From an uncultured Neomegalonema sp. (lineage in GTDB: Bacteria; Pseudomonadota; Alphaproteobacteria; Rhodobacterales; Rhodobacteraceae), in assembly GCA_937957975.1 (NCBI GenBank), contig CALFFK010000010.1:1-64000 (forward strand): 64,000 nucleotides of DNA, in the 5' to 3' direction. Positions 30,031 through 46,742 of the stretch are shown piece after piece. The notes below the pieces were generated by a model. It saw only the letters and a program-made list of their open reading frames with translations, was not told the origin of the DNA and did no database searches. Numbering within the stretch: the stretch's first letter is position 1; each line of letters begins with the position of its first letter. Made by a program: the position numbers and the translations under genes.

Positions 30031-30621
30031 ATGATTTCACGCAGACAGATCGTCCTCGGTGCTGCAGCGAGCGGATTGCCGATCAATGCTGCATCTGCCC
30101 TCGTGCCAACACCGCAACAGACGCCAGGGCCGTTTTATCCTGACATCCTGCCCCGCGAGAGTGATGCCGATTTGGTGTCGATTGCAGGCGGGCCACCCGC
30201 AGCAGGCGCCGTGATCGTGGTCGAGGGGCGGGTACTGGGGACCGATGGTCGCCCGGTAGTCGGGGCATCGCTGGAGTTATGGCAAGCCAATGCATATGGG
30301 CGTTATTCTCACAGTGCAGATCGCTCGAATGTCCCGCTCGATCCGAATTTTCAGGGGTATGGCGTGGTGCGTACGGATGCGGATGGGCGCTACCGTTTTC
30401 GTACGATCCAACCCGGAGCCTATACAGGGCGCACACAGCACCTGCATTTCTATGCAACGGGGCCGGGTTTCGAGAGAACACCGATGCAGATGTATTTTGC
30501 GGGTAATCCGGGGAACGAGGTCGATTTTCTCTGGCGTTCATTGACCGGGCCTGCCGCGCGCGATGCGGTGACGGTCAATTTTGAAGGCGGCACCGGGACG
30601 TTCGACATCGTTCTGGGGTAA
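30031..30621 (+). CDS. Exported intradiol ring-cleavage dioxygenase family protein
   Basis: A 196-residue protein with a likely twin-arginine signal (SRRQIVL at residues 3-9, then an Ala-rich stretch to about 23), suggesting export in folded form. It matches protocatechuate 3,4-dioxygenase-type enzymes: iron ligands by position are Tyr92 (RYSH), Tyr131 (PGAYTGR), His137 and His139 (QHLHF). PcaH/PcaG are cytoplasmic and occur in pairs; this stand-alone, exported form resembles the poorly understood periplasmic branch. Substrate unknown, aromatic diols inferred. Confidence 0.85.
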   Translation: MISRRQIVLGAAASGLPINAASALVPTPQQTPGPFYPDILPRESDADLVSIAGGPPAAGAVIVVEGRVLGTDGRPVVGASLELWQANAYGRYSHSADRSNVPLDPNFQGYGVVRTDADGRYRFRTIQPGAYTGRTQHLHFYATGPGFERTPMQMYFAGNPGNEVDFLWRSLTGPAARDAVTVNFEGGTGTFDIVLG

Positions 30622-30667: not shown

Positions 30668-32779
30668 TTACGGCGTGATAAACCGTGTTCCGGCACCAAG
30701 CAGTGTATTCGTGCCGCCGAGTAATTGCGTCAGTGTCCGGTTCCAGTTCGTGACCGGCTGTGGTGTTACGTAGATCGTATCATCCGGGCGCAATTTGAAG
30801 ACCGTCGCGGCAGAGAGGTTTGCGATATTCTGGGCATTGAGTTTGAAGATATACACTTTTGCCCGGACTGAATCCGCGTTGTCGGTGCGAATCACATGGA
30901 TACCGCGTGGATCGCCTTCTCTGGGGTTAATCCCCTCTGATTCGAACAGGGCGTCTGCGAGGCTGATTGTTGAGCCGAAGGGCATCGGCATCCGGGTCGT
31001 CCTGCCCACTTCACCTGTCACATAAACATAATCCCGTGCGAGGGAATCGAGTCGTTCGGCTGTTTCGAGGCGAGACAGTTCGAGAGTTGCCCGGCCACGT
31101 TCATCTGCGCGTTCGCGTAGGATCTGTTCCTCGCGCGACAGATCGAATTGGCCCCGGCGAAGCTCCAGTTCCTGATCGCTGCGGTTGGCATTGCGCTCCA
31201 GCAGATCAGTGTTGCGTGCCTGAATATCGGCATTGCGTTGCTGAATAGTGAGTTGGGCATTGTCGCGCTCAGCCTGTGCGCGTTGCAGTTCCAGTAACGC
31301 ATTCGCCCGTTCATCACCTGCACGCTGCAATTCAAGGGCAGCCTGTTCGCGGTTGTCTTTGGCTTGTTGGAGATTGAAAGCCGTGCGTTCGCGTTCTTCG
31401 CGGGCTATCTGAAGCTCAAGTTGCGATTGTTCACGCTGGTCCTTCAGGCGTTGCAAATCGAAGGCGGCTTGGTCGCGTTCATTCTTCAGGCGCTGAAATT
31501 TGAACGCTTCTTGCTCGCGCTGTTCGCGCTGGGCTTGCAGGGTGCCTGCTTCGGCCTCGCGTTGTTCACGAAGTCGCTGGAGTTCAAGCTGCTGATCTTC
31601 GCGTTGTTCACGGAGGCGCTGGAGTTCGAGTTGCTGTTCGGCGCGGCGGGCATCCGCTTCTGCCTGGGCCAGACGGGCGCGTTCGAGGGCGATACGTTCC
31701 TGACTCAAGCGCAGGTTTTCCTGACTGCGGACATCGTCGTTGCGAGAGAGCAGAAGCTGTTGTTCGGCGAGCCGACGCTGGGATTCCTGGGAAACAATCT
31801 GCTCACGTTGAAGGCGCAGACGATCCTTGTCTATATTGACGGATTCGAGCGTGCGGGTCAGTTCAGCCTGTCGCGCCTCTTCGCCCGACGGATCCTGCAC
31901 GATGACCTGATCTCCGTCGCGCATAACTGTACGCGAACCTCCCCCTTCATACGCGATTGAAGAATAGGGTACGCGGTAACGTTGACCATTTTTGCGAACG
32001 AGTTCGACCGTTGCTGCATCGTAAATCGTGCTATCCGTCGCAACCTTGAGCAGGGCTTGACGCAAGGTGACAGGGTCCATTGTTACAGGGGCTGCAAGTG
32101 GCCTGATACTGCGCCCCGTGATCGAATAAAACTGACTCTTGAAGTCTGTGACATTCACCAATGCGACGGGTGAAATATATACTTTTTTCATCCGCTCCAG
32201 AACTTCGCTACGGACTTGTTCGACGTCTTTGCCTTCGACGTTAATGTAATCGAGTTGCGGAACGAAAATACGGCCTTGCTGATCGACAAGATAGCTGTTT
32301 TGAAGCTGTGCGTCGGCGTTGTTCTGGTCGTTTGTCGCGACGTTTGCTATCTGGAGGACATCACCTTTGCCAATTTTGTAGGAGATAATGGGATCTTCCG
32401 GCAAACGGTTGGACGCGGATGATTGTGAGGTCGCATAGACGGCCACGGGTCCGTCGGCCTGGGCCAGCCGCGTGGGGGAATATGGTGCGGGTGCTGCGCC
32501 GAATTGCCCGGTGCCTTGCAGTTGGCCGGGTAATGGCCTTGGGTTGTAAGGCCAGCGCACATTCGCTTCCTGTGCCGCCGCAATAGTCAGGTTCACGATC
32601 TGAAGGTCGTAAGGGAAGCGTTCATCATCCTTGATGAAGAGTGACTTTTCACTGGGCGCAAAAGATGGATGGTAAATTGCGCCACAGCCCACCAAAAGGG
32701 CACTCGCCGTGATGCCGAGGGCGACGGAACGAAGGATACCGGAGGGTACGGCCTGACTGGAGAAAATCTTCACTGCCAC
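30668..32779 (-). CDS. Polysaccharide export lipoprotein with SLBB domains and long coiled coil
   Basis: A 703-residue Wza-like outer-membrane export protein. A signal peptide ends in the lipobox LVGC (lipid on Cys32). A poly-export domain (SYKIGKGDVLQIANV, about 124-210) is followed by a first SLBB (about 215-300), then a roughly 280-residue charged coiled coil (about 300-578), and a second SLBB-like domain (VYVTGEVGRTTRMPMPFG, about 583-660). The coiled coil contains ten exact-length 14-residue repeats. GTG 32779 is chosen because AGGA lies 8 bases upstream; a longer frame to 32965 starts upstream of the signal peptide. No Wzc, Wzx/Wzy or glycosyltransferase genes are nearby. Confidence 0.85.
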   Translation of the reverse strand: MAVKIFSSQAVPSGILRSVALGITASALLVGCGAIYHPSFAPSEKSLFIKDDERFPYDLQIVNLTIAAAQEANVRWPYNPRPLPGQLQGTGQFGAAPAPYSPTRLAQADGPVAVYATSQSSASNRLPEDPIISYKIGKGDVLQIANVATNDQNNADAQLQNSYLVDQQGRIFVPQLDYINVEGKDVEQVRSEVLERMKKVYISPVALVNVTDFKSQFYSITGRSIRPLAAPVTMDPVTLRQALLKVATDSTIYDAATVELVRKNGQRYRVPYSSIAYEGGGSRTVMRDGDQVIVQDPSGEEARQAELTRTLESVNIDKDRLRLQREQIVSQESQRRLAEQQLLLSRNDDVRSQENLRLSQERIALERARLAQAEADARRAEQQLELQRLREQREDQQLELQRLREQREAEAGTLQAQREQREQEAFKFQRLKNERDQAAFDLQRLKDQREQSQLELQIAREERERTAFNLQQAKDNREQAALELQRAGDERANALLELQRAQAERDNAQLTIQQRNADIQARNTDLLERNANRSDQELELRRGQFDLSREEQILRERADERGRATLELSRLETAERLDSLARDYVYVTGEVGRTTRMPMPFGSTISLADALFESEGINPREGDPRGIHVIRTDNADSVRAKVYIFKLNAQNIANLSAATVFKLRPDDTIYVTPQPVTNWNRTLTQLLGGTNTLLGAGTRFITP
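31211..31630 (-). repeat. Ten tandem 42-base units in the export lipoprotein gene
   Basis: Exactly 420 bases encode ten in-register 14-residue repeats (protein residues 384-523 from the GTG start). The pattern is hydrophobic-x-hydrophobic-Gln at positions 1-4, then a basic stretch and an ERE/QRE-like core, for example LELQRLREQREDQQ and FNLQQAKDNREQAA. The copies differ in sequence but not in length, so the repeat is old and under selection for length. Confidence 0.85.
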
Positions 32780-33185
32780 GGTCTCTTTCCTGTTGTCTTG
32801 CGGTTTCAGGATACCCTTAAGTTCCGGGTTTGCCTTAGGATGGGCAATCCGAATGCGAAAACTGGGCCAGCCTGAATTCATCCACCGATTGTTATACCAT
32901 CTGTCGATGCAGTCAAAAGGATGTCTATTGTACCAAGTGTCCGAGTGTCGTGATTCGTAGCACAATAGAGCTGTTTTGCTTCATCGTTTCGCCGCAAGCT
33001 TACCGTTGCGGTCGGTGATGAGCAAGGCATTGCATGAGCATTGCGATAGGCATGGAATGCTGCTTTCAGGTCGAACATTGAACAGTCGCGCGTCTCCTTT
33101 GCTGGAATGGGTGGACGGGAGGTTGGATGTTCGTGTCATATCTGCATTCTGTTGCCTGATTGCCCTCCGCTAAAGAAAGAGTCCA
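32780..33185. other. 406-base divergent region between export lipoprotein and gph
   Basis: This region should hold both promoters. On the minus strand TTGACT (32916-32911) and TATAAC (32896-32891) have only 14 bases between them, a weak promoter. A GCATTGC direct repeat occurs near 33027-33042. No convincing gene or RNA structure was seen. Confidence 0.5.
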
Positions 33186-33869: not shown

Positions 33870-33962
33870 TTGCTATAAGATATGGCCGCCGCCGCCATCC
33901 TTGACATCCCGCCTGTCCCGTGGCCTTTCCCTTCCGAAACCTCCACACGCCGGAATACCGCC

Positions 33963-35729
33963 ATGCACGCTTATCGTACCCATACCTGCAATGACCTTCG
34001 CAAGAGTGACGAGGGGCAGAATATCCGCCTTTCCGGCTGGGTCCATCGTGTGCGTGACCATGGGGGGGTGCTGTTTATCGACCTGCGCGACCATTACGGG
34101 ATGACGCAAGTGCTGGCTGATAGTGACAGCCCGGTCTTTTCGGAAATCGAGAAGGTGCGTTCCGAATGGGTGATCCGCATAGACGGGAACGTCAAGGCCC
34201 GCGATGCAAACCTTGTGAACGCGAATATCGCGACGGGTGAGGTCGAGGTGTATATCCGTGACATGGAGGTGCTGGGCAAGGCGGATGAACTGCCCTTGCC
34301 GGTCTTTGGCGATCAGGAATATCCTGAAGAAACGCGCCTGAAATACCGTTTTCTCGATCTTCGGCGCGAAGGGCTGCACGAGAACATGAAGCTGCGCTCC
34401 CGCGTCTTTACCCATACGCGGCAGGCGATGGACGGGATCGGGTTCACAGAATACCAGACGCCTATTCTCACGGCATCCTCGCCAGAGGGCGCGCGCGATT
34501 TTCTGGTGCCGTCGCGTCTGCACCCCGGTACGTTCTACGCGCTGCCGCAGGCTCCGCAGCAGTTCAAGCAGCTTATCATGGTTGCCGGGTTTGATCGCTA
34601 TTTCCAGATCGCGCCGTGTTTCCGCGATGAAGACCCCCGCGCTGACCGTTCGCCCGGTGAGTTCTATCAACTCGATCTGGAGATGAGCTTTGTTGAGCAG
34701 GGCGAGGTTCTGAACACCATGGAGCCGGTGGTGCGTGGCATCTTTGAGGCCTTTGCGGATGGCAAGCCGGTGACACAGGAATTTCGACGGATTCCCTATG
34801 CCGAGTCATTGCTGAAATATGGCTCCGACAAGCCCGACTTGCGTAATCCTATCGAAATGCAGGTCGTCAGCGATCATTTTCGGGGATCGGGCTTCAAGAT
34901 TTTCGCGTCGATGCTGGAGAAGCCGGAGAACGAAATCCGTGCCATTCCTGCGCCCAAGGGCGGCAGCCGCAAGTTTTGCGACCGCATGAACGCCTGGGCG
35001 CAGAAAGAGGGTCTGCCGGGGATGGGGTATATCTTCTGGAAAGACGGAGCAGGGTCCGGGCCGCTGGCTAAAAATATTGGACCTGAACGGACCGAGGCTG
35101 TGCGCGAACAGCTTGGTTTGGGCGATGGTGATGCCGCCTTCTTCCTTGCGGGCAAGCCCGATAGCTTCCTCGCCATTGCGGGCCGCGCGCGGGATGTGAT
35201 CGCGGATGAATTGGAACTGGCCGATAAGGACCGTTTTGAGCTGTGCTGGATCGTCGATTACCCGATGTACGAATATGACGACGAGAATAAGAAAGTCGAT
35301 TTCTCGCATAACCCCTTCTCGATGCCGATGGGCGGAATGGAGGCACTGGAGAGCGGTGATCCACTGAACCTGTTAGCCTATCAATACGATGTGGTGTGCA
35401 ACGGCTATGAACTCGGTTCGGGCGCAATACGGAACCACAAGCCGGAAATCATGCTCAAGGCTTTCGAGATTGCGGGCTATCCGGCGTCCGAAGTCGAAGC
35501 CCGGTTCGGCGGGATGCTTAACGCCTTCAAATACGGCGCCCCGCCCCATGGCGGCATGGCGCTGGGTATGGAGCGGATCGTGATGCTGCTGGCCGGTGAA
35601 AACGCCATCCGCGAAGTCGTCATGTTCCCCATGAACCAACGCGCCGAAGACCTGATGATGGGCGCTCCGGCAGAAGTGGATCAAACGCAATTGCGGGAAC
35701 TGGGGATTCGCTTGGCTCCGAGGGACTGA
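33963..35729 (+). CDS. aspS: Aspartyl-tRNA synthetase
   Basis: Charges tRNA-Asp (and, in bacteria lacking asparaginyl-tRNA synthetase, sometimes tRNA-Asn). The 588-residue class II enzyme has an N-terminal OB-fold ([24 protein letters not shown]), motif 2 in [23 protein letters not shown], a bacterial insertion domain, and motif 3 in [19 protein letters not shown] 33963 starts the family N-terminus ([12 protein letters not shown]). Its 3' end abuts a restriction endonuclease gene 4 bases further on. Confidence 0.97.
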
Positions 35730-35733
35730 GAAA

Positions 35734-36465
35734 ATGCTGGAGCCGCTTCATGCTTTAGATTTTGATATTTTGGTCAAGAATCATGCAGATGCGATTCTTA
35801 CTCAGGATTTTCCAGATGATCTCTGTGCTGTTATTGAGATCCTTGCGTCCTTTAAGCTTGATGTGGCCGAGATTATTGGTGGCGGTGGCGGTGAAGCGAT
35901 CTTTACCCAACGATTACGCAAGAGCCTTACTGATGCAGGCTGGCCAAAGCATGTGTTCAATGTCCAGACTATTGTAGATGGAGCGGAGAGAGAGGCTATT
36001 GGTCACGAAATTGATCATGTGAAAAATTGTTCAAACGGTACGCTTGCCCTTGAGATAGAATGGAATAACAAGGATCCATTTTATGATCGAGATTTGGAGA
36101 ATTTCCAAAGACTTCATGTGATCTCCGCTATTAGCGTCGGCATTATCGTGACACGTGGTGCGAGCCTGCAAGATGCTTTCCTTCGGCGTATATCATCAAG
36201 ATTGCAAAGAGACGGTATCGTTGATGAGGGTGGTCTCGAAATCTATGGAATTACTGAACGCACATCTGCGCAGCGCAGGGCCGTAGAAAAAATGACGCAG
36301 CGTCAAATTCCATTCGCAGATGCTTTCAGCCGTAATTTTGTATCAAGTAAATTCGGACAGGCGACCACGCATTGGTCGAAACTGCGTATACGTGTAGATA
36401 GAGGAGTTGGGAATCCTTGCCCTCTCTTATTAATTGGTTTGCCTGAGACAATTCTCGAAGGCTGA
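35734..36465 (+). CDS. Type II restriction endonuclease, BglII/BstYI-like
   Basis: A 243-residue protein that fits the BglII/BstYI endonuclease family, PD-(D/E)XK enzymes cutting sites such as AGATCT or RGATCY. The catalytic cluster by position is Asp94 (HEIDHV), Glu107 and Glu109 (ALEIEWNNKDPFYDRDL). The EIEWNNKDPFYDRDL run and the following hydrophobic strand (ISVGIIVTRG) match the BstYI layout. The start is ATG 35734, 4 bases after aspS, within its 3' AGGGACTGAGAAA. The gene is visibly AT-richer than aspS, a sign of transfer. The partner methyltransferase is convergent. Confidence 0.82.
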   Translation: MLEPLHALDFDILVKNHADAILTQDFPDDLCAVIEILASFKLDVAEIIGGGGGEAIFTQRLRKSLTDAGWPKHVFNVQTIVDGAEREAIGHEIDHVKNCSNGTLALEIEWNNKDPFYDRDLENFQRLHVISAISVGIIVTRGASLQDAFLRRISSRLQRDGIVDEGGLEIYGITERTSAQRRAVEKMTQRQIPFADAFSRNFVSSKFGQATTHWSKLRIRVDRGVGNPCPLLLIGLPETILEG

Positions 36466-36466
36466 A

Positions 36467-37099
36467 CTACTCCGCTGCGACCGTCGAATTATAGTCGTAT
36501 GTCTTCCAGTCCGGTTTGTAATCCGCATCTGCCTGATTGCCCCATACGCTCCAGCCATCACGCACGCCGCGACCGAAGAGTTCGAGATACGGTCCCCAGC
36601 TACAGCTTTCGATCAGGTCGTACTGCTCATCCGGTTTGCGCGAATGCTCACGCTTGCGGGTTTGCATCATGTTGACCTGTCTCCGTCCCGGCGGCAGCGT
36701 TCGGACGTTTTTCCCGCGTGTTCCGAATAACAGGATTTCTGTGACATTGCGGAAATAGAAACCTACCCCGCGCCCATCAGACCCGCCGTCCTTTCGAATC
36801 TTGTGCCAGATGACATTGGACTTGTACGTGAATCCCCACGCATCCATCACTTTAAGCCCTTCGGGCAATAAGGCGTTCGGCACCCACATATAGCAATGGG
36901 CGCGCTCCTCCATGAAATCGGAGACGGTGAGATCACAGATTGCTTCGACATCGAGTGTTTCGTATCGCGAAAGACGCTTGTGTTCAGGGGCGACTTTCCC
37001 AGTGCGATTTACGAAACGCCATGGTGGATCGGCCAATACGGTAGAGAAGCGATCTTTCCCGACGAAATCGGCCAAATCCTGCGAAGCGTCTTGTGACAT
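36467..37099 (-). CDS. MT-A70 family N6-adenine DNA methyltransferase
   Basis: A 210-residue S-adenosylmethionine-dependent methyltransferase with the catalytic DPPW motif at residues 24-27 (VLADPPWRF), the MT-A70 form of the adenine-methylase DPPY signature. Later segments (NVIWHKIRKDGG, TEILLFGTRGK, PYLELFGRG) are typical. It stands convergent and 1 base from the BstYI-like endonuclease and is its likely protective partner. Start 37099 is chosen because a TATAAT box (37135-37130) lies 30 bases upstream; an earlier ATG at 37195 would precede that promoter. Confidence 0.85.
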   Translation of the reverse strand: MSQDASQDLADFVGKDRFSTVLADPPWRFVNRTGKVAPEHKRLSRYETLDVEAICDLTVSDFMEERAHCYMWVPNALLPEGLKVMDAWGFTYKSNVIWHKIRKDGGSDGRGVGFYFRNVTEILLFGTRGKNVRTLPPGRRQVNMMQTRKREHSRKPDEQYDLIESCSWGPYLELFGRGVRDGWSVWGNQADADYKPDWKTYDYNSTVAAE

Positions 37100-37129
37100 C
37101 GGGTTTACGATCCGTGAAAAGCTGAATTT

Positions 37130-37135
37130 ATTATA
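37130..37135 (-). promoter_or_regulatory. -10 box of the methyltransferase gene
   Basis: A perfect TATAAT on the minus strand. The -35 region (around CCGTTC) is weak. It lies 30 bases upstream of ATG 37099. Confidence 0.45.
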
Positions 37136-37321
37136 GGAGAACCTTACTGGAACGGATCGCTGTGTCAAACCTTCAGATTTATCGATGGAGGGCAATCTGC
37201 TGATGCGACAGGAAGTGTTGAAACACGATTCATTCCTGCGACCGGCGGTGTAACGAAATCCCTTTGTCGAAACCCGCTGCTGACGTTAGGAATAGGCGCT
37301 TGGTGATGAAGGGGTAGTGCG

Positions 37322-43534: not shown

Positions 43535-44350
43535 TTACCCACGTTTGCGCCCGACCAGTCCCTTGGATGGATCATAGGCGTAAATTGCCGCGCCAAGGAA
43601 TGCCGCCGTTATGGCGATGACGACCCCTGCCGCCATCCAGTTCACTTGCCCATAGAGGGCAAAGCGGATCAATTCGACGGCATAGGTGAACGGATTGAAC
43701 CAGCAAATATCGTAGAGTAATTCGCTCGATTCCTGTATTCGCCATAGCGGGTAGAGGGCCGAGGAAGCGAAGAACATCGGGAAGATGACGAAATTCATTA
43801 CCCCGGCAAAATTCTCCAGTTGCCGGATGGTTGAGGAGAGCAGCAGGCCAATGGCGCCCAGCATCATGCCCGACAGGATCAGGGCGGGCAGGAGCGCGAG
43901 ATACCCTATGGGCGGTGGGCGAATATCCCAAAACCATGCGATCAGCAGAAAAGCGTAGACCTGTAGGATCGACACCGCAACGCCCGCAATCAGCTTTGAA
44001 CTGAGGACAAACCAGCGAGGGTAGGGGCTGACCAACAGGGTGCGCATCGCGCCGGTTTCACGGTCATAAACCATAGACAGGGATGATTGCATCCCGTTGA
44101 AAAGCTGAATCATCGCGCAGAGGCCGGGCGTCACGTAGACTTCATACAGCACGTAGGTCTCGTAGGGCGGCGTAATAGAGAGTCCGAGAACCGAGCGAAA
44201 ACCGGCGGCGAATATGAACAGCCAGACGAGGGGGCGAACGAGGGCCGAGAGAAATCGCTCCCGCTGCTGTGCGAAACGAATAGCTTCGCGCCAGACGATG
44301 CCGGAAAGGGCAACAAACCGGCCCGACCAGCCCAGACGGTCGGTGGTCAT
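43535..44350 (-). CDS. ABC-2 type transporter permease
   Basis: A 271-residue inner-membrane permease with six helices of the ABC-2 family, exporters of drugs, lipids or polysaccharides. A conserved cytosolic loop (MVYDRETGAMRTLLVSPYPRW) and the typical PMFFASSALYPLWRI helix 5 region are visible. It overlaps the ATPase gene by four bases (ATGA), so the two form an exporter. It is the last gene of a minus-strand run starting with peptide-importer genes. Confidence 0.9.
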   Translation of the reverse strand: MTTDRLGWSGRFVALSGIVWREAIRFAQQRERFLSALVRPLVWLFIFAAGFRSVLGLSITPPYETYVLYEVYVTPGLCAMIQLFNGMQSSLSMVYDRETGAMRTLLVSPYPRWFVLSSKLIAGVAVSILQVYAFLLIAWFWDIRPPPIGYLALLPALILSGMMLGAIGLLLSSTIRQLENFAGVMNFVIFPMFFASSALYPLWRIQESSELLYDICWFNPFTYAVELIRFALYGQVNWMAAGVVIAITAAFLGAAIYAYDPSKGLVGRKRG

Positions 44351-45099
44351 GCTGCGATTTCCCGTTCGTCTATGCCGGTCATCGCGAGGAAACGATCGCT
44401 CAATGTCGTATCGCCTGCGATTTCGCCTGCGGTCCCCTGAGCCAGCACTTCGCCATGATGCAGCAGAATGACAGGATCAGTCGTGCGAACTTCGTCGAAC
44501 AGATGGGTTGCCCAGAGCACACCGACTTCGCCACTCTCAACCAATGCCCGAACCGTATCCACCACATCGGTGCGGGAGCGTACATCCAGACCGACAGTGG
44601 CTTCATCGAGAAGCAACAGCGTAGGGTCGTGCATGAGGGCGCGTGCAATTTCGGCGCGGCGTACCTGTCCACCGGAGAGGGTTGCGACTTTGGATTCGCC
44701 TTTATCAAGCAGGCCGACCCGCTCAAGCACCCGATCACCGCGTTCGATTGCTTCGCGTCGCCCGATACCGTGCAGGGCGGCATGGTAGCGCAGGTTTTGG
44801 CGGATGGTGAGGCTTATATCCAGAGAGCGTGACTGGAAGACGACTCCCATGCGCGCCAGAGCGGGGCCAGGTTCGCGGCGCACATCATGGCCGCATACCT
44901 CGATGGAACCGCTGACATTATCATAGAGGCGGGTGATGAGGGAAAAGAGGGTACTTTTTCCCGCGCCATTTACGCCAAGCAAGGCAACGAAATCGCCGCG
45001 CTTTACGGTGAGCGATGTGTTTTTCAGGGCCTGTACGGCCCCGAAAGCGTGACTGACACTCTCTACGCGCAGAGCGTCGTGATCCGCTGTGCCGCTCAT
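44347..45099 (-). CDS. ABC-2 transporter ATP-binding protein
   Basis: A 250-residue ATPase energising the adjacent ABC-2 permease. Walker A GVNGAGKST lies near residues 42-50, the signature LSGGQVRRAEIARAL, Walker B LLLLDEATVGLD, and switch histidine in WATHLFDEV are intact. Its layout is of the CcmA/NatA group. It overlaps both neighbours by four bases: the permease downstream and the peptide-importer ATPase upstream. Confidence 0.93.
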   Translation of the reverse strand: MSGTADHDALRVESVSHAFGAVQALKNTSLTVKRGDFVALLGVNGAGKSTLFSLITRLYDNVSGSIEVCGHDVRREPGPALARMGVVFQSRSLDISLTIRQNLRYHAALHGIGRREAIERGDRVLERVGLLDKGESKVATLSGGQVRRAEIARALMHDPTLLLLDEATVGLDVRSRTDVVDTVRALVESGEVGVLWATHLFDEVRTTDPVILLHHGEVLAQGTAGEIAGDTTLSDRFLAMTGIDEREIAA

Positions 45100-46742
45100 G
45101 CGTCCGCCGATTCAACCTTGATGCCGGAGCGTTCACGTTCTTCAAGCAGATTGGTAAGCCAGTCGGGGTCCATCTCAGGCACAGAAGACAGCAAGAGATC
45201 AGTGTATGGATGGTGTGGTGGCCTGAACATCTCGGTCTTCGGACCCTGCTCCACTACCTTGCCATGCTGCATAACGACCACTTCGTCTGCGATGGCCCGT
45301 ACGGTCGCCAGATCATGCGTGATGAACATATAGGCGAGGCCCAGCTCGGTCTGGAGACGGTCGAGAAGGCGCAGGATGCCTTCAGCGACAAGCTGGTCTA
45401 GCGCGCTCGTCACTTCGTCGCAGATAATGAACTCCGGGTCTGCGGCCAGCGCACGGGCGATGCCGATACGTTGTTTCTGGCCGCCCGATAATTCTCCGGG
45501 GAAGCGGTGGCCAAAGACATCTGGTTCCATCTCAATCAAATTGAGCAACTCGCGCACCCGTTCGTCCCGCGCGCGGCCCTTGAGACCGAGATAGAATTCG
45601 ACAGGGCGGCCGATGATCTCGCTGATACGTTGTTTTGGATTCAGGGCCGTATCGGCCATCTGATAGATCATCTGCGCCTGACGCAGTTGATCCTTGCTCC
45701 GCCGCTTGAAGCTGGGGGGTAATGCCTCGCCGTTGAACAACACGTCGCCGGCAGTTGGGGGCAAAAGCCCCGTGATGACGCGCGCCGCTGTGGATTTGCC
45801 TGAGCCAGACTCGCCAACCACCGCAACAGTGCGGCCTTTGTGGATGTCGAAGCTGACGCCATGCAATACGGGCACTGGCCCATAGGACGCATCGACATTG
45901 CGTAAACTGACGACCGGCACTGCATCGGCAGCAGGGGCCGGTTTGGCGGATGCCTTAAAGCTGCGCACAGCCCAGAGGGATTTGGTGTAGTCCTGCGTCG
46001 GGGCGCTCAGCATGGTGCGGGTGTCGGCTTCCTCAACCAGCACGCCGTGTTTCAATACCATGATACGGTCTGCCATCTGGGCGACGACGGCAAGGTCATG
46101 GGTGATGTAGATTGCCGCTGTGCCGAATTGTTCCACCGCTGAACGAATTGCGGCCAGAACCTCGATCTGGGTTGTCACGTCCAGCGCCGTCGTTGGCTCG
46201 TCGAAGATGATGAGGTCGGGGCGACAGGACATGGCCATCGCCGTCATGGCGCGTTGGAGTTGTCCCCCGGACACCTGATGTGGATAACGAAAGCCAATTT
46301 CGTCGGGATTCGGCAATTGAAGACGCCGATAGAGGTCGGTCGCGTCTGTCTCTGCCTCGTCCTTCTTCATCACCGAGTGCTGAACAGGGGCTTCCGAATA
46401 TTGGTCAATCAGGCGGTGGGCCGGGTTGAAACTCGCCGCTGCCGATTGTGCGACATAGGCGATGCGTTTGCCGCGCAGACTACGGCGTTTCGACTCGCTT
46501 GCCTTGGCCAGATCGAGATCATCGAATTCGATGCTGCCACCTGAAATCCGGCACCCGCCACGCACATAGCCCATTGCGGCAAGGCCCATCGTGGATTTGC
46601 CTGCGCCGGATTCACCGATCAGGCCGAGGACTTCGCCGCGCCGCAGGTCGAGATCGATGCCCTTGATGATTGGCAGCCAGTCATCGCCGGTCTTTCCGTC
46701 GATCTTAACACCGCGCATCTTCAGGAGAATATCGTCGCTCAT
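45096..46742 (-). CDS. Peptide-type ABC importer ATPase, fused DppD-DppF
   Basis: A 548-residue protein with two complete ABC ATPase halves, matching the fused DppD/DppF layout of oligopeptide importers. The first half has GESGAGKST and SGGQLQRAMTAMAMSC; the second has GESGSGKST and LSGGQKQRIGIARAL, each followed by an oligopeptide-transporter C-terminal extension. ATG 46742 is chosen because AAGGAG lies 8 bases upstream; an ATG at 46748 overlaps the permease stop (TAATG). Confidence 0.93.
   Translation of the reverse strand: MSDDILLKMRGVKIDGKTGDDWLPIIKGIDLDLRRGEVLGLIGESGAGKSTMGLAAMGYVRGGCRISGGSIEFDDLDLAKASESKRRSLRGKRIAYVAQSAAASFNPAHRLIDQYSEAPVQHSVMKKDEAETDATDLYRRLQLPNPDEIGFRYPHQVSGGQLQRAMTAMAMSCRPDLIIFDEPTTALDVTTQIEVLAAIRSAVEQFGTAAIYITHDLAVVAQMADRIMVLKHGVLVEEADTRTMLSAPTQDYTKSLWAVRSFKASAKPAPAADAVPVVSLRNVDASYGPVPVLHGVSFDIHKGRTVAVVGESGSGKSTAARVITGLLPPTAGDVLFNGEALPPSFKRRSKDQLRQAQMIYQMADTALNPKQRISEIIGRPVEFYLGLKGRARDERVRELLNLIEMEPDVFGHRFPGELSGGQKQRIGIARALAADPEFIICDEVTSALDQLVAEGILRLLDRLQTELGLAYMFITHDLATVRAIADEVVVMQHGKVVEQGPKTEMFRPPHHPYTDLLLSSVPEMDPDWLTNLLEERERSGIKVESADA

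What the first reader, a model, noticed from the sequence alone, without database searches (positions are those of the whole stretch)
31046..31882. Export lipoprotein with a coiled coil built of ten exact 14-residue repeats between SLBB domains
Wza-like export proteins are usually about 350-400 residues. This one has about 280 charged residues between its two SLBB domains, including ten in-register 14-residue units (31211-31630) whose length is constant though the sequence varies. Such a rod could extend the channel across the periplasm or dock a partner. No polysaccharide synthesis genes are nearby, so it may serve an unlinked or unusual system.
Basis: partly seen in the sequence, partly recalled or inferred. 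Interest (0 to 1): 0.6.

Follow-up and report, generated by a model that had tools for sequence, protein, structure and literature searches.

The report
Sugar exporter with expandable helical arm
A bacterial protein that helps push slimy sugar chains out of the cell carries, between two of its standard domains, a very long helical arm whose length differs within one group of close relatives only in steps of seven residues; the exporter family is well known, but this arm looks like an undescribed variant whose shape and job remain to be shown.

Summary
The gene (30668-32773, minus strand) is a Wza/OPX-type export lipoprotein with 287 residues between SLBB1 and SLBB2, including ten in-register 14-residue units (lag-14 identity z = 10). 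In the wider family the same site holds exactly 62 residues in 116 of 125 measured rows, modelled in one of them as an unbroken helix. In ten Neomegalonema genomes it is expanded to 189-287 residues, always a multiple of 7; ten of ten indels between close pairs are 7, 14 or 28 residues, against none of six elsewhere in the same proteins. Two paralogs (172, 240) break the rule. It is helical by prediction, but over its length not a canonical coiled coil. A straight channel-extending rod is unlikely, because the N-terminal tether did not lengthen; a folded-back arm fits better but is unproven. Likely partner genes are unlinked (Wzc-like kinase, YjbH, YjbF). Helical regions in alpha-proteobacterial OPX proteins are in print (PMC2850547), but in the S. 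meliloti examples checked the helix lies inside the SLBB domain. New variant of a known kind; mechanism open.

The parts
30668..32773 (-). OPX (Wza-type) polysaccharide export lipoprotein gene, GTG start, 701 aa plus stop
   Evidence: start chosen because a lipoprotein signal follows directly
32684..32686 (-). lipobox cysteine (LLVGC), first residue of the mature lipoprotein
   Evidence: sequence; Cys nearly invariant in alignment A1
32555..32611 (-). N-terminal arm (strand + helix, mature 26-44); the VIA alignment to Wza runs from model residue 24 and Wza residue 45
32150..32383 (-). Poly_export domain (PF02563), D1
31895..32134 (-). SLBB1 (D2), up to the last strand GDQVIVQ
31034..31894 (-). 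287-aa insert between SLBB1 and SLBB2 (mostly 62 aa in the wider family)
31526..31882 (-). predicted helix 1 of the insert (mature 269-387)
   Evidence: ten-residue block pLDDT 76-88 to residue 370, then falling to 51
31121..31492 (-). predicted helix 2 of the insert (mature 399-522); the break before it has block pLDDT 51 and may be an alignment artefact
31211..31630 (-). ten in-register 14-residue units
30767..31027 (-). SLBB2 (D3)
30671..30751 (-). C-terminal segment with the WNR motif of Wza; Wza_C not listed here, but above cut-off in the short ortholog L033

Best explanation
The gene makes an outer-membrane polysaccharide export (OPX, Wza-type) lipoprotein of a Rhodobacterales lineage. 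Most relatives carry a connector of fixed length (62 residues, predicted as a single helix) between D2 (SLBB1) and D3 (SLBB2). In Neomegalonema this connector was multiplied, in steps of 7 and 14 residues, into a 189-287-residue helical arm. Because the N-terminal connection between the membrane anchor or arm and D1 did not lengthen, the helix most likely folds back on itself, so that D3 stays near D2 while the arm projects from their junction, roughly 12-19 nm long if it is one hairpin, and packs against neighbouring arms or a partner such as the Wzc-type co-polymerase. The seven-residue quantum keeps the helix phase at both fixed ends. Shown: family identity, position, quantised lengths, unlengthened tether, unlinked candidate partner genes. 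Predicted: helicity. Inferred: octamer, fold-back, packing, partner, cargo.
For: Domains and Wza match. 62-aa connector in 116 of 125 measured rows outside the genus; one unbroken helix 258-309 in the model of L033. Ten type A lengths 189, 203, 210, 224, 238, 245, 259, 259, 266, 287, all multiples of 7. Indels between five close pairs: 10 of 10 multiples of 7 (11 of 11, 11 of 11 and 9 of 9 under other gap costs) against 0 of 6 outside the insert; one of them (7 residues, L005/L010) lies in the N-terminal flank, outside the 14-residue units. Tether limits: five of nine type A proteins with complete N-termini could not span a straight helix even fully taut. AlphaFold splits the insert into two nearly equal helices, 119 and 124 residues. 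Candidate partners: YjbH in 13 of 14 genus genomes and YjbF in 13 of 14 (12 over the cut-off), in G000 side by side on C66; type B paralog directly before the start of a yjbH gene (L094); orthologs on Rhodobacterales plasmids beside YjbH/YjbF, glycosyltransferases or a tyrosine autokinase (three records); type A gene followed by a manC-like gene in G007 and G008; a metallophosphoesterase beside the OPX gene in L005 and beside the Wzc-like gene in G000.
Against: The 14-residue register runs unbroken through the AlphaFold break, which lies at the edge of a stretch where the alignment leaves the window protein nearly alone, so the predicted turn may be an artefact; pTM is 0.40. I saw no conserved turn residues. 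Indels are not mirrored about the middle of the insert, as I would expect of a hairpin with a fixed tip. Wza, the closest relative of known structure, has no such helix here. That the N-terminal arm packs on D3 in Wza is recalled, not tested. Four of the nine type A proteins could just span a straight helix by the Cys-to-D1 tether. Type B proteins have both a long insert and a long linker (172/124, 240/173), which fits a straight spacer in them. Partner assignment rests on unlinked genes.
Confidence: 0.5

Rival explanations
1. Straight spacer: eight parallel helices lengthen the channel between D2 and D3, so that the exporter itself bridges more of the periplasm.
For: The 62-residue form is predicted as one unbroken helix between D2 and D3; type B proteins lengthened insert and linker together; no clear turn in the repeat register; four of nine type A proteins could just span it by the Cys-to-D1 tether.
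Against: Type A linkers stay at 58-67 aa while inserts run from 189 to 287; five of nine cannot span it even fully taut, and by the shorter arm-to-D1 linker none of nine can, though the shortest, L013, only just fails (23.0 against 23.4 nm; this holds only if the arm sits on D3); the window protein would need about 44 nm, the top of the 210-442 A periplasm range given in PMC9603273 (section 8).
Confidence: 0.2
2. Mutational drift: a helix-coding repeat that duplicates and contracts by 21- or 42-base steps, tolerated but with little function of its own.
For: Nine different lengths in ten species; units are repeats, so recombination gives multiples of 7 by itself; a 42-base DNA repeat is still recognisable.
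Against: The connector is 62 in 116 of 125 rows outside the genus; a 7-residue indel lies outside the 14-residue units; the flanks also diverged between the 7-mer and 14-mer groups while totals stayed multiples of 7; no stop codon inside any of the matches.
Confidence: 0.22
3. The insert is the membrane-fusion-protein-like helical region already described in alpha-proteobacterial OPX proteins (ExoF type).
For: Same class of bacteria, same protein family, long central helical region (PMC2850547, parts 1 and 2 of 3 read).
Against: In the three S. meliloti pSymB OPX proteins the Pfam SLBB match stops early (profile 2-37, 2-51 and 2-37 of 55) and the helical stretch follows before the last strand (read by eye); in L251, the only one of them sent to NCBIfam, that stretch matches HlyD (TIGR01843, E 4e-12). 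The window protein has two SLBB domains with the helix between them, and no HlyD match is listed at E up to 1.
Confidence: 0.05

Closest known systems
E. coli Wza (class 1 OPX; PDB 2j58, 9r60)
   Same: Poly_export, two SLBB domains, WNR motif after SLBB2; Foldseek E 8.9e-17, rmsd 23.7; VIA Z 15.7, rmsd 20.3, 272 aligned; Wza is a lipoprotein in print, the window protein has a lipobox
   Different: Wza has no long helix between D2 and D3; here 287 residues. Wza_C was not listed for the window protein.
Rhodobacterales OPX proteins of about 455 aa ('polysaccharide biosynthesis/export family protein')
   Same: same domain order and the same insertion site; best relatives outside the genus
   Different: insert 62 residues in 116 of 125 rows; one helix in the model of L033; no repeat signal in the two tested, L033 and L034
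ExoF-type OPX of S. meliloti and the MFP-like helical regions of PMC2850547
   Same: alpha-proteobacterial OPX with a long helical region
   Different: helix inside the single SLBB domain and, in L251, HlyD-like; here between two SLBB domains and no HlyD match
GfcABCDE / YjbEFGH (group 4 capsule) systems
   Same: YjbH (GfcD-like) and YjbF (GfcB-like) occur in the genome and next to some relatives; PMC8592465 (abstract and passages) describes GfcD as an outer-membrane beta-barrel
   Different: no linkage in this genome; physical contact untested; no search for a GfcC/YjbG gene was made

Membership tests
OPX (Wza-type outer membrane polysaccharide export) | Poly_export domain followed by SLBB domain(s) | tested here: met
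   PF02563 46.1 bits (cut-off 28), PF22461 48.5 bits (cut-off 27), two stretches
OPX (Wza-type outer membrane polysaccharide export) | lipoprotein signal (most class 1 members) | tested here: met
   lipobox LLVGC by sequence only, no signal-peptide predictor run; Cys nearly invariant in A1
OPX class 1 | C-terminal outer-membrane helix (Wza_C) | tested here: inconclusive
   not listed for the window protein at E up to 1; above cut-off in L033 (29.2 of 25.8), below in L013 (15.0) and L021 (22.9); WNR motif present
OPX (Wza-type outer membrane polysaccharide export) | octameric ring | not testable with these tools
   only monomers could be predicted
ExoF-type OPX with MFP-like helical region | helical region interrupts the SLBB domain and resembles HlyD-type MFPs | tested here: not met
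canonical left-handed coiled coil (over the whole insert) | hydrophobic residues with 3.5-residue periodicity | tested here: not met
   ILMFV power at 3.5 is 0.0-0.3 times the shuffle mean in six 14-mer inserts; peaks at 7 (six of six) and about 14 (four of six); whole-insert moment within the range of 500 shuffles in all twelve inserts. Local 28-residue stretches reach higher moments, so short segments are not excluded
Gfc/Yjb group 4-like system | OPX gene in an operon with yjbF/yjbH | tested here: not met
   yjbH and yjbF are on another contig in this genome; adjacency seen in some relatives; this lowers 'is part of that operon', not 'works with it'

The most novel reading that the evidence does not exclude
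The eight arms of the exporter form a register-locked outer sheath of antiparallel helices, held together not by heptad stripes but by alternating hydrophobic and charged bands every 14 residues (about 2.1 nm), enclosing the junction between the exporter and its inner-membrane kinase. Each species tunes the sheath length in whole helical steps, and the kinase's periplasmic arm is lengthened in the same genomes (66-73 extra residues between the apparent membrane segments, in four blocks, in the two 14-mer genomes compared with four 7-mer genomes).
Probability: 0.15. Interest if true: 0.65.

Novelty: new variant of a known kind. Interest (0 to 1): 0.45.

Why it matters
OPX proteins are usually described as stacked rings (D1-D3) under an outer-membrane pore. 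Here a large group of relatives places a connector of nearly invariant length, predicted as one helix, between two of those rings, and one genus stretches it three- to nearly fivefold, in seven-residue steps in one of its two branches. That makes the question of what sets the geometry of sugar exporters across the periplasm testable by natural length variants. It also separates two independent helical insertions in OPX proteins that could otherwise be lumped together.

Tried and rejected
Rejected: ExoF/MFP-type hairpin; canonical coiled coil over the whole insert; single charged alpha-helix (E+R+K+D 41%, L 15%; judged from composition only, no predictor run). Insert alone against PDB sequences: no hit at 0.001. 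RNA families above gathering score and tRNAs in the window: none. S. meliloti pSymB annotation was absent, so 'ExoF' for L251 is a recalled name resting on gene position, not on a label. The Wza structure paper is not held, so domain limits of Wza are recalled. VIA rows were filled by D1-SLBB1, so the insert was barely tested there. A covariation of kinase length with insert length was looked at but rests on two clades and unlinked genes; G004's copy (two stops inside) was not aligned, and G005, G006 and G009 showed only weak partial matches.

Results against my reading: exceptions to the seven-residue rule are type B (172 and 240, differing by 68) and, outside the genus, 28, 58 (two rows), 59 (two) and 65 (two), beside 55 and 48 which fit it. 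Chance figures of the kind (1/7)^n are naive, since repeat recombination itself favours multiples of 7. One or more 62-type rows have a linker far above 55 (range 54-162), not followed up. The tree is midpoint-rooted; type B groups with the 62-residue proteins and type A apart, so lengthening may have occurred twice, or been reversed. Rows dropped: for the tree every fifth 62-residue row was used (37 rows in all); in the census only fetched DNA was measured: of 118 places listed, 30 came as loci and 76 were fetched, 12 were left out (two of these genes were in hand), and rows without a locus were not fetched; for linkers 117 of 138 rows matched my patterns.

Full report
Observation. The ORF on the minus strand at 30668-32965 is a Wza-type export protein (Poly_export 46.1 bits, SLBB_2 48.5 bits in two stretches; best solved relative Wza 2j58, E 7.8e-25, both halves matched). 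A GTG at 32773 followed by a lipoprotein signal with Cys at 32684-32686 is the likely start. Between the last strand of SLBB1 and the first of SLBB2 lie 287 residues (31034-31894). The ten units at 31211-31630 are in register, with lag-14 identity far above shuffles and no signal at lag 7 (z 1.6 over the insert).

Origin and relatives. The window lies in a genome close to metagenome-assembled Neomegalonema genomes (four named relatives, 48-75% identity in the best segment; G000, 3.27 Mb, 125 contigs). In the genus, 11 of 14 genomes have a relative. Ten carry what I call type A and two (G008, G013) type B; G008 has both. With the C-terminal domain as query, 113 of 390 genomes of the order match at 1e-12.

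Length census. With HMM anchors on both SLBB domains, 138 rows, made distinct by script, could be measured in the DNA in hand; loci lacking either anchor in one open frame, and 12 of the 118 places, are not counted. Outside the genus: 125 rows, 116 of them exactly 62 residues, the rest 28, 48, 55, 58 (two), 59 (two) and 65 (two). In the genus: 13 rows (two of them the same type B gene): type A 189, 203, 210, 224, 238, 245, 259, 259, 266 and 287, type B 172 and 240. All ten type A values are multiples of 7. Between five close type A pairs all ten indels are 7, 14 or 28 residues; with other gap costs 11 of 11, 11 of 11 and 9 of 9 are multiples of 7. In the rest of the same proteins the inner indels are 4, 1, 1, 3, 2 and 1. 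The seven-residue rule is thus a property of the insert. Recombination between repeats must contribute to it; the 7-residue indel in the N-terminal flank (L005/L010) and the prevailing 62 argue that selection does too.

Structure. AlphaFold (33-row alignment, mean pLDDT 75.4, pTM 0.40) gives helices 269-387 and 399-522 of the mature protein. For the ortholog L033 (430-residue mature part, 26 rows, mean pLDDT 80.7, pTM 0.43) it gives one unbroken helix, 258-309. The break in the long model lies where the alignment leaves the window protein nearly alone, and the 14-residue register crosses it unbroken, so I do not take it as a proven turn.

Not a classical coiled coil over its length. In the six 14-mer inserts the pattern of I, L, M, F and V has peaks at 7 (six of six) and at about 14 (four of six), and almost nothing at 3.5 (0.0-0.3 times the shuffle mean). 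The unit reads as a hydrophobic half (positions 13, 14, 1, 3, 6) and a polar half (7-12), with Q at position 4 in ten of ten and R at position 10 in nine of ten units. The four 7-mer inserts instead show charge at period 3.5. In local 28-residue stretches the 3.5-residue moment is higher, but its phase wanders along the insert. The helix therefore seems to carry bands along its axis rather than one stripe; this is my inference.

Geometry. [quoted passage not shown] From Cys to the start of D1 the window protein has 102 residues. A straight helix of 254 residues spans 38 nm; with about 6 nm assumed for D2 and D3 that needs 44 nm, against at most 35 nm of fully taut tether. The same holds for the five longest of the nine type A proteins with complete N-termini, not for the other four. 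The linker from the N-terminal arm to D1 is 58-67 residues in the nine type A proteins measured, whatever the insert length, against a median of 55 in 102 rows with 62-residue inserts, and 124 and 173 in type B (117 of 138 rows could be measured). If the arm packs on D3, as I recall for Wza, the taut linker is shorter than the straight helix in all nine, only marginally so in L013 (23.0 against 23.4 nm), but longer in both type B proteins. Hence the fold-back reading for type A.

System. Of 57 other ORFs in the greedy window list, 37 were scanned and none matched a polysaccharide synthesis family. The genome has YjbH and YjbF side by side on C66, a Wzc-like kinase followed by a metallophosphoesterase on C78, a second OPX on C115, and a short OPX on C70 and a Wzz protein on C1. 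On three plasmid records of relatives the OPX gene lies beside YjbH/YjbF (Phaeobacter porticola), beside two ORFs annotated 'Bacterial putative lipoprotein' and 'hypothetical protein' together with glycosyltransferases (Marinovum), or near a tyrosine autokinase and sugar genes (Sulfitobacter indolifex). In G007 and G008 a ManC-like gene follows it. So the protein very probably exports an exopolysaccharide; which one is unknown.

Co-polymerase. The kinases of G000 and G002 (three sequences, open frames of 783-798 aa) carry blocks of 13, 29 and 14 residues, plus 10-17 further ones, that five sequences of four 7-mer genomes (664-682 aa) lack, all between the two apparent membrane segments. This is a lead only: two clades, unlinked genes.

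Tree. On the conserved domains (37 rows, midpoint root) type A is one clade (99/98) with 7-mer and 14-mer subclades; type B groups with the shorter forms (99/98).

Prior art. PMC2850547 (parts 1 and 2 of 3, that is all but the figure part) reports a long helical region, similar to that of membrane fusion proteins, in alpha-proteobacterial OPX proteins related to ExoF. The S. meliloti pSymB proteins examined here have it inside the SLBB domain, HlyD-like in L251, so it is a different insertion. PMC9603273 (abstract, sections 6 and 8 and passages) classifies OPX proteins and gives a class 1 median of 378 aa; 'coiled' and 'Rhodobacter' do not occur in its main text. PMC1796856 (passages) describes a small helical insert within SLBB domains of this clade, between strands 4 and 5. 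PMC12881504 (abstract and one section) gives the 360 A Wza-Wzc assembly. PMC5082667 (passages) reviews length-conserved coiled coils. Searches of the library listed no paper whose title or abstract start announces a helix between D2 and D3 of an OPX protein; most listed papers were not opened, and most subscription papers are not held.

Verdict. A real, well-supported structural variant of a known exporter family, with an unusual seven-residue length rule in one branch; mechanism open.

Noticed in passing
window 35734-36465 (+) and 36467-37195 (-): BglII-family restriction endonuclease (PF09195, E 4e-26) beside a convergent MT-A70 methyltransferase (PF05063, E 1e-24), just after the ORF at 33882-35729 (aspS by eye, not scanned): a likely restriction-modification pair.
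   Followed up: partly
G000 C78 (L071 10304-12697) and relatives L114, L115, L128: Wzc-like kinases of two 14-mer genomes have 66-73 extra residues between the apparent membrane segments compared with those of four 7-mer genomes.
   Followed up: partly
L016 (G013) and L021 (G008): Type B OPX paralogs with long inserts (172, 240) and long N-terminal linkers (124, 173), lengthened together.
   Followed up: partly
window 30031-30621 (+): Dioxygenase_C (intradiol dioxygenase-like) protein (PF00775) next to the OPX gene; a similar-looking ORF lies next to the OPX gene of L003 (by eye on the translated start).
   Followed up: partly
L217, L240, L235, L239, L248, L249: Outside the genus, six of the nine non-62 connectors differ from 62 by 3 or 4 residues (58, 59, 65), about one helical turn.
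   Followed up: no
window 43538-45111 (-): ABC-2 type permease and ABC ATPase pair of unknown cargo, about 11 kb from the OPX gene.
   Followed up: no
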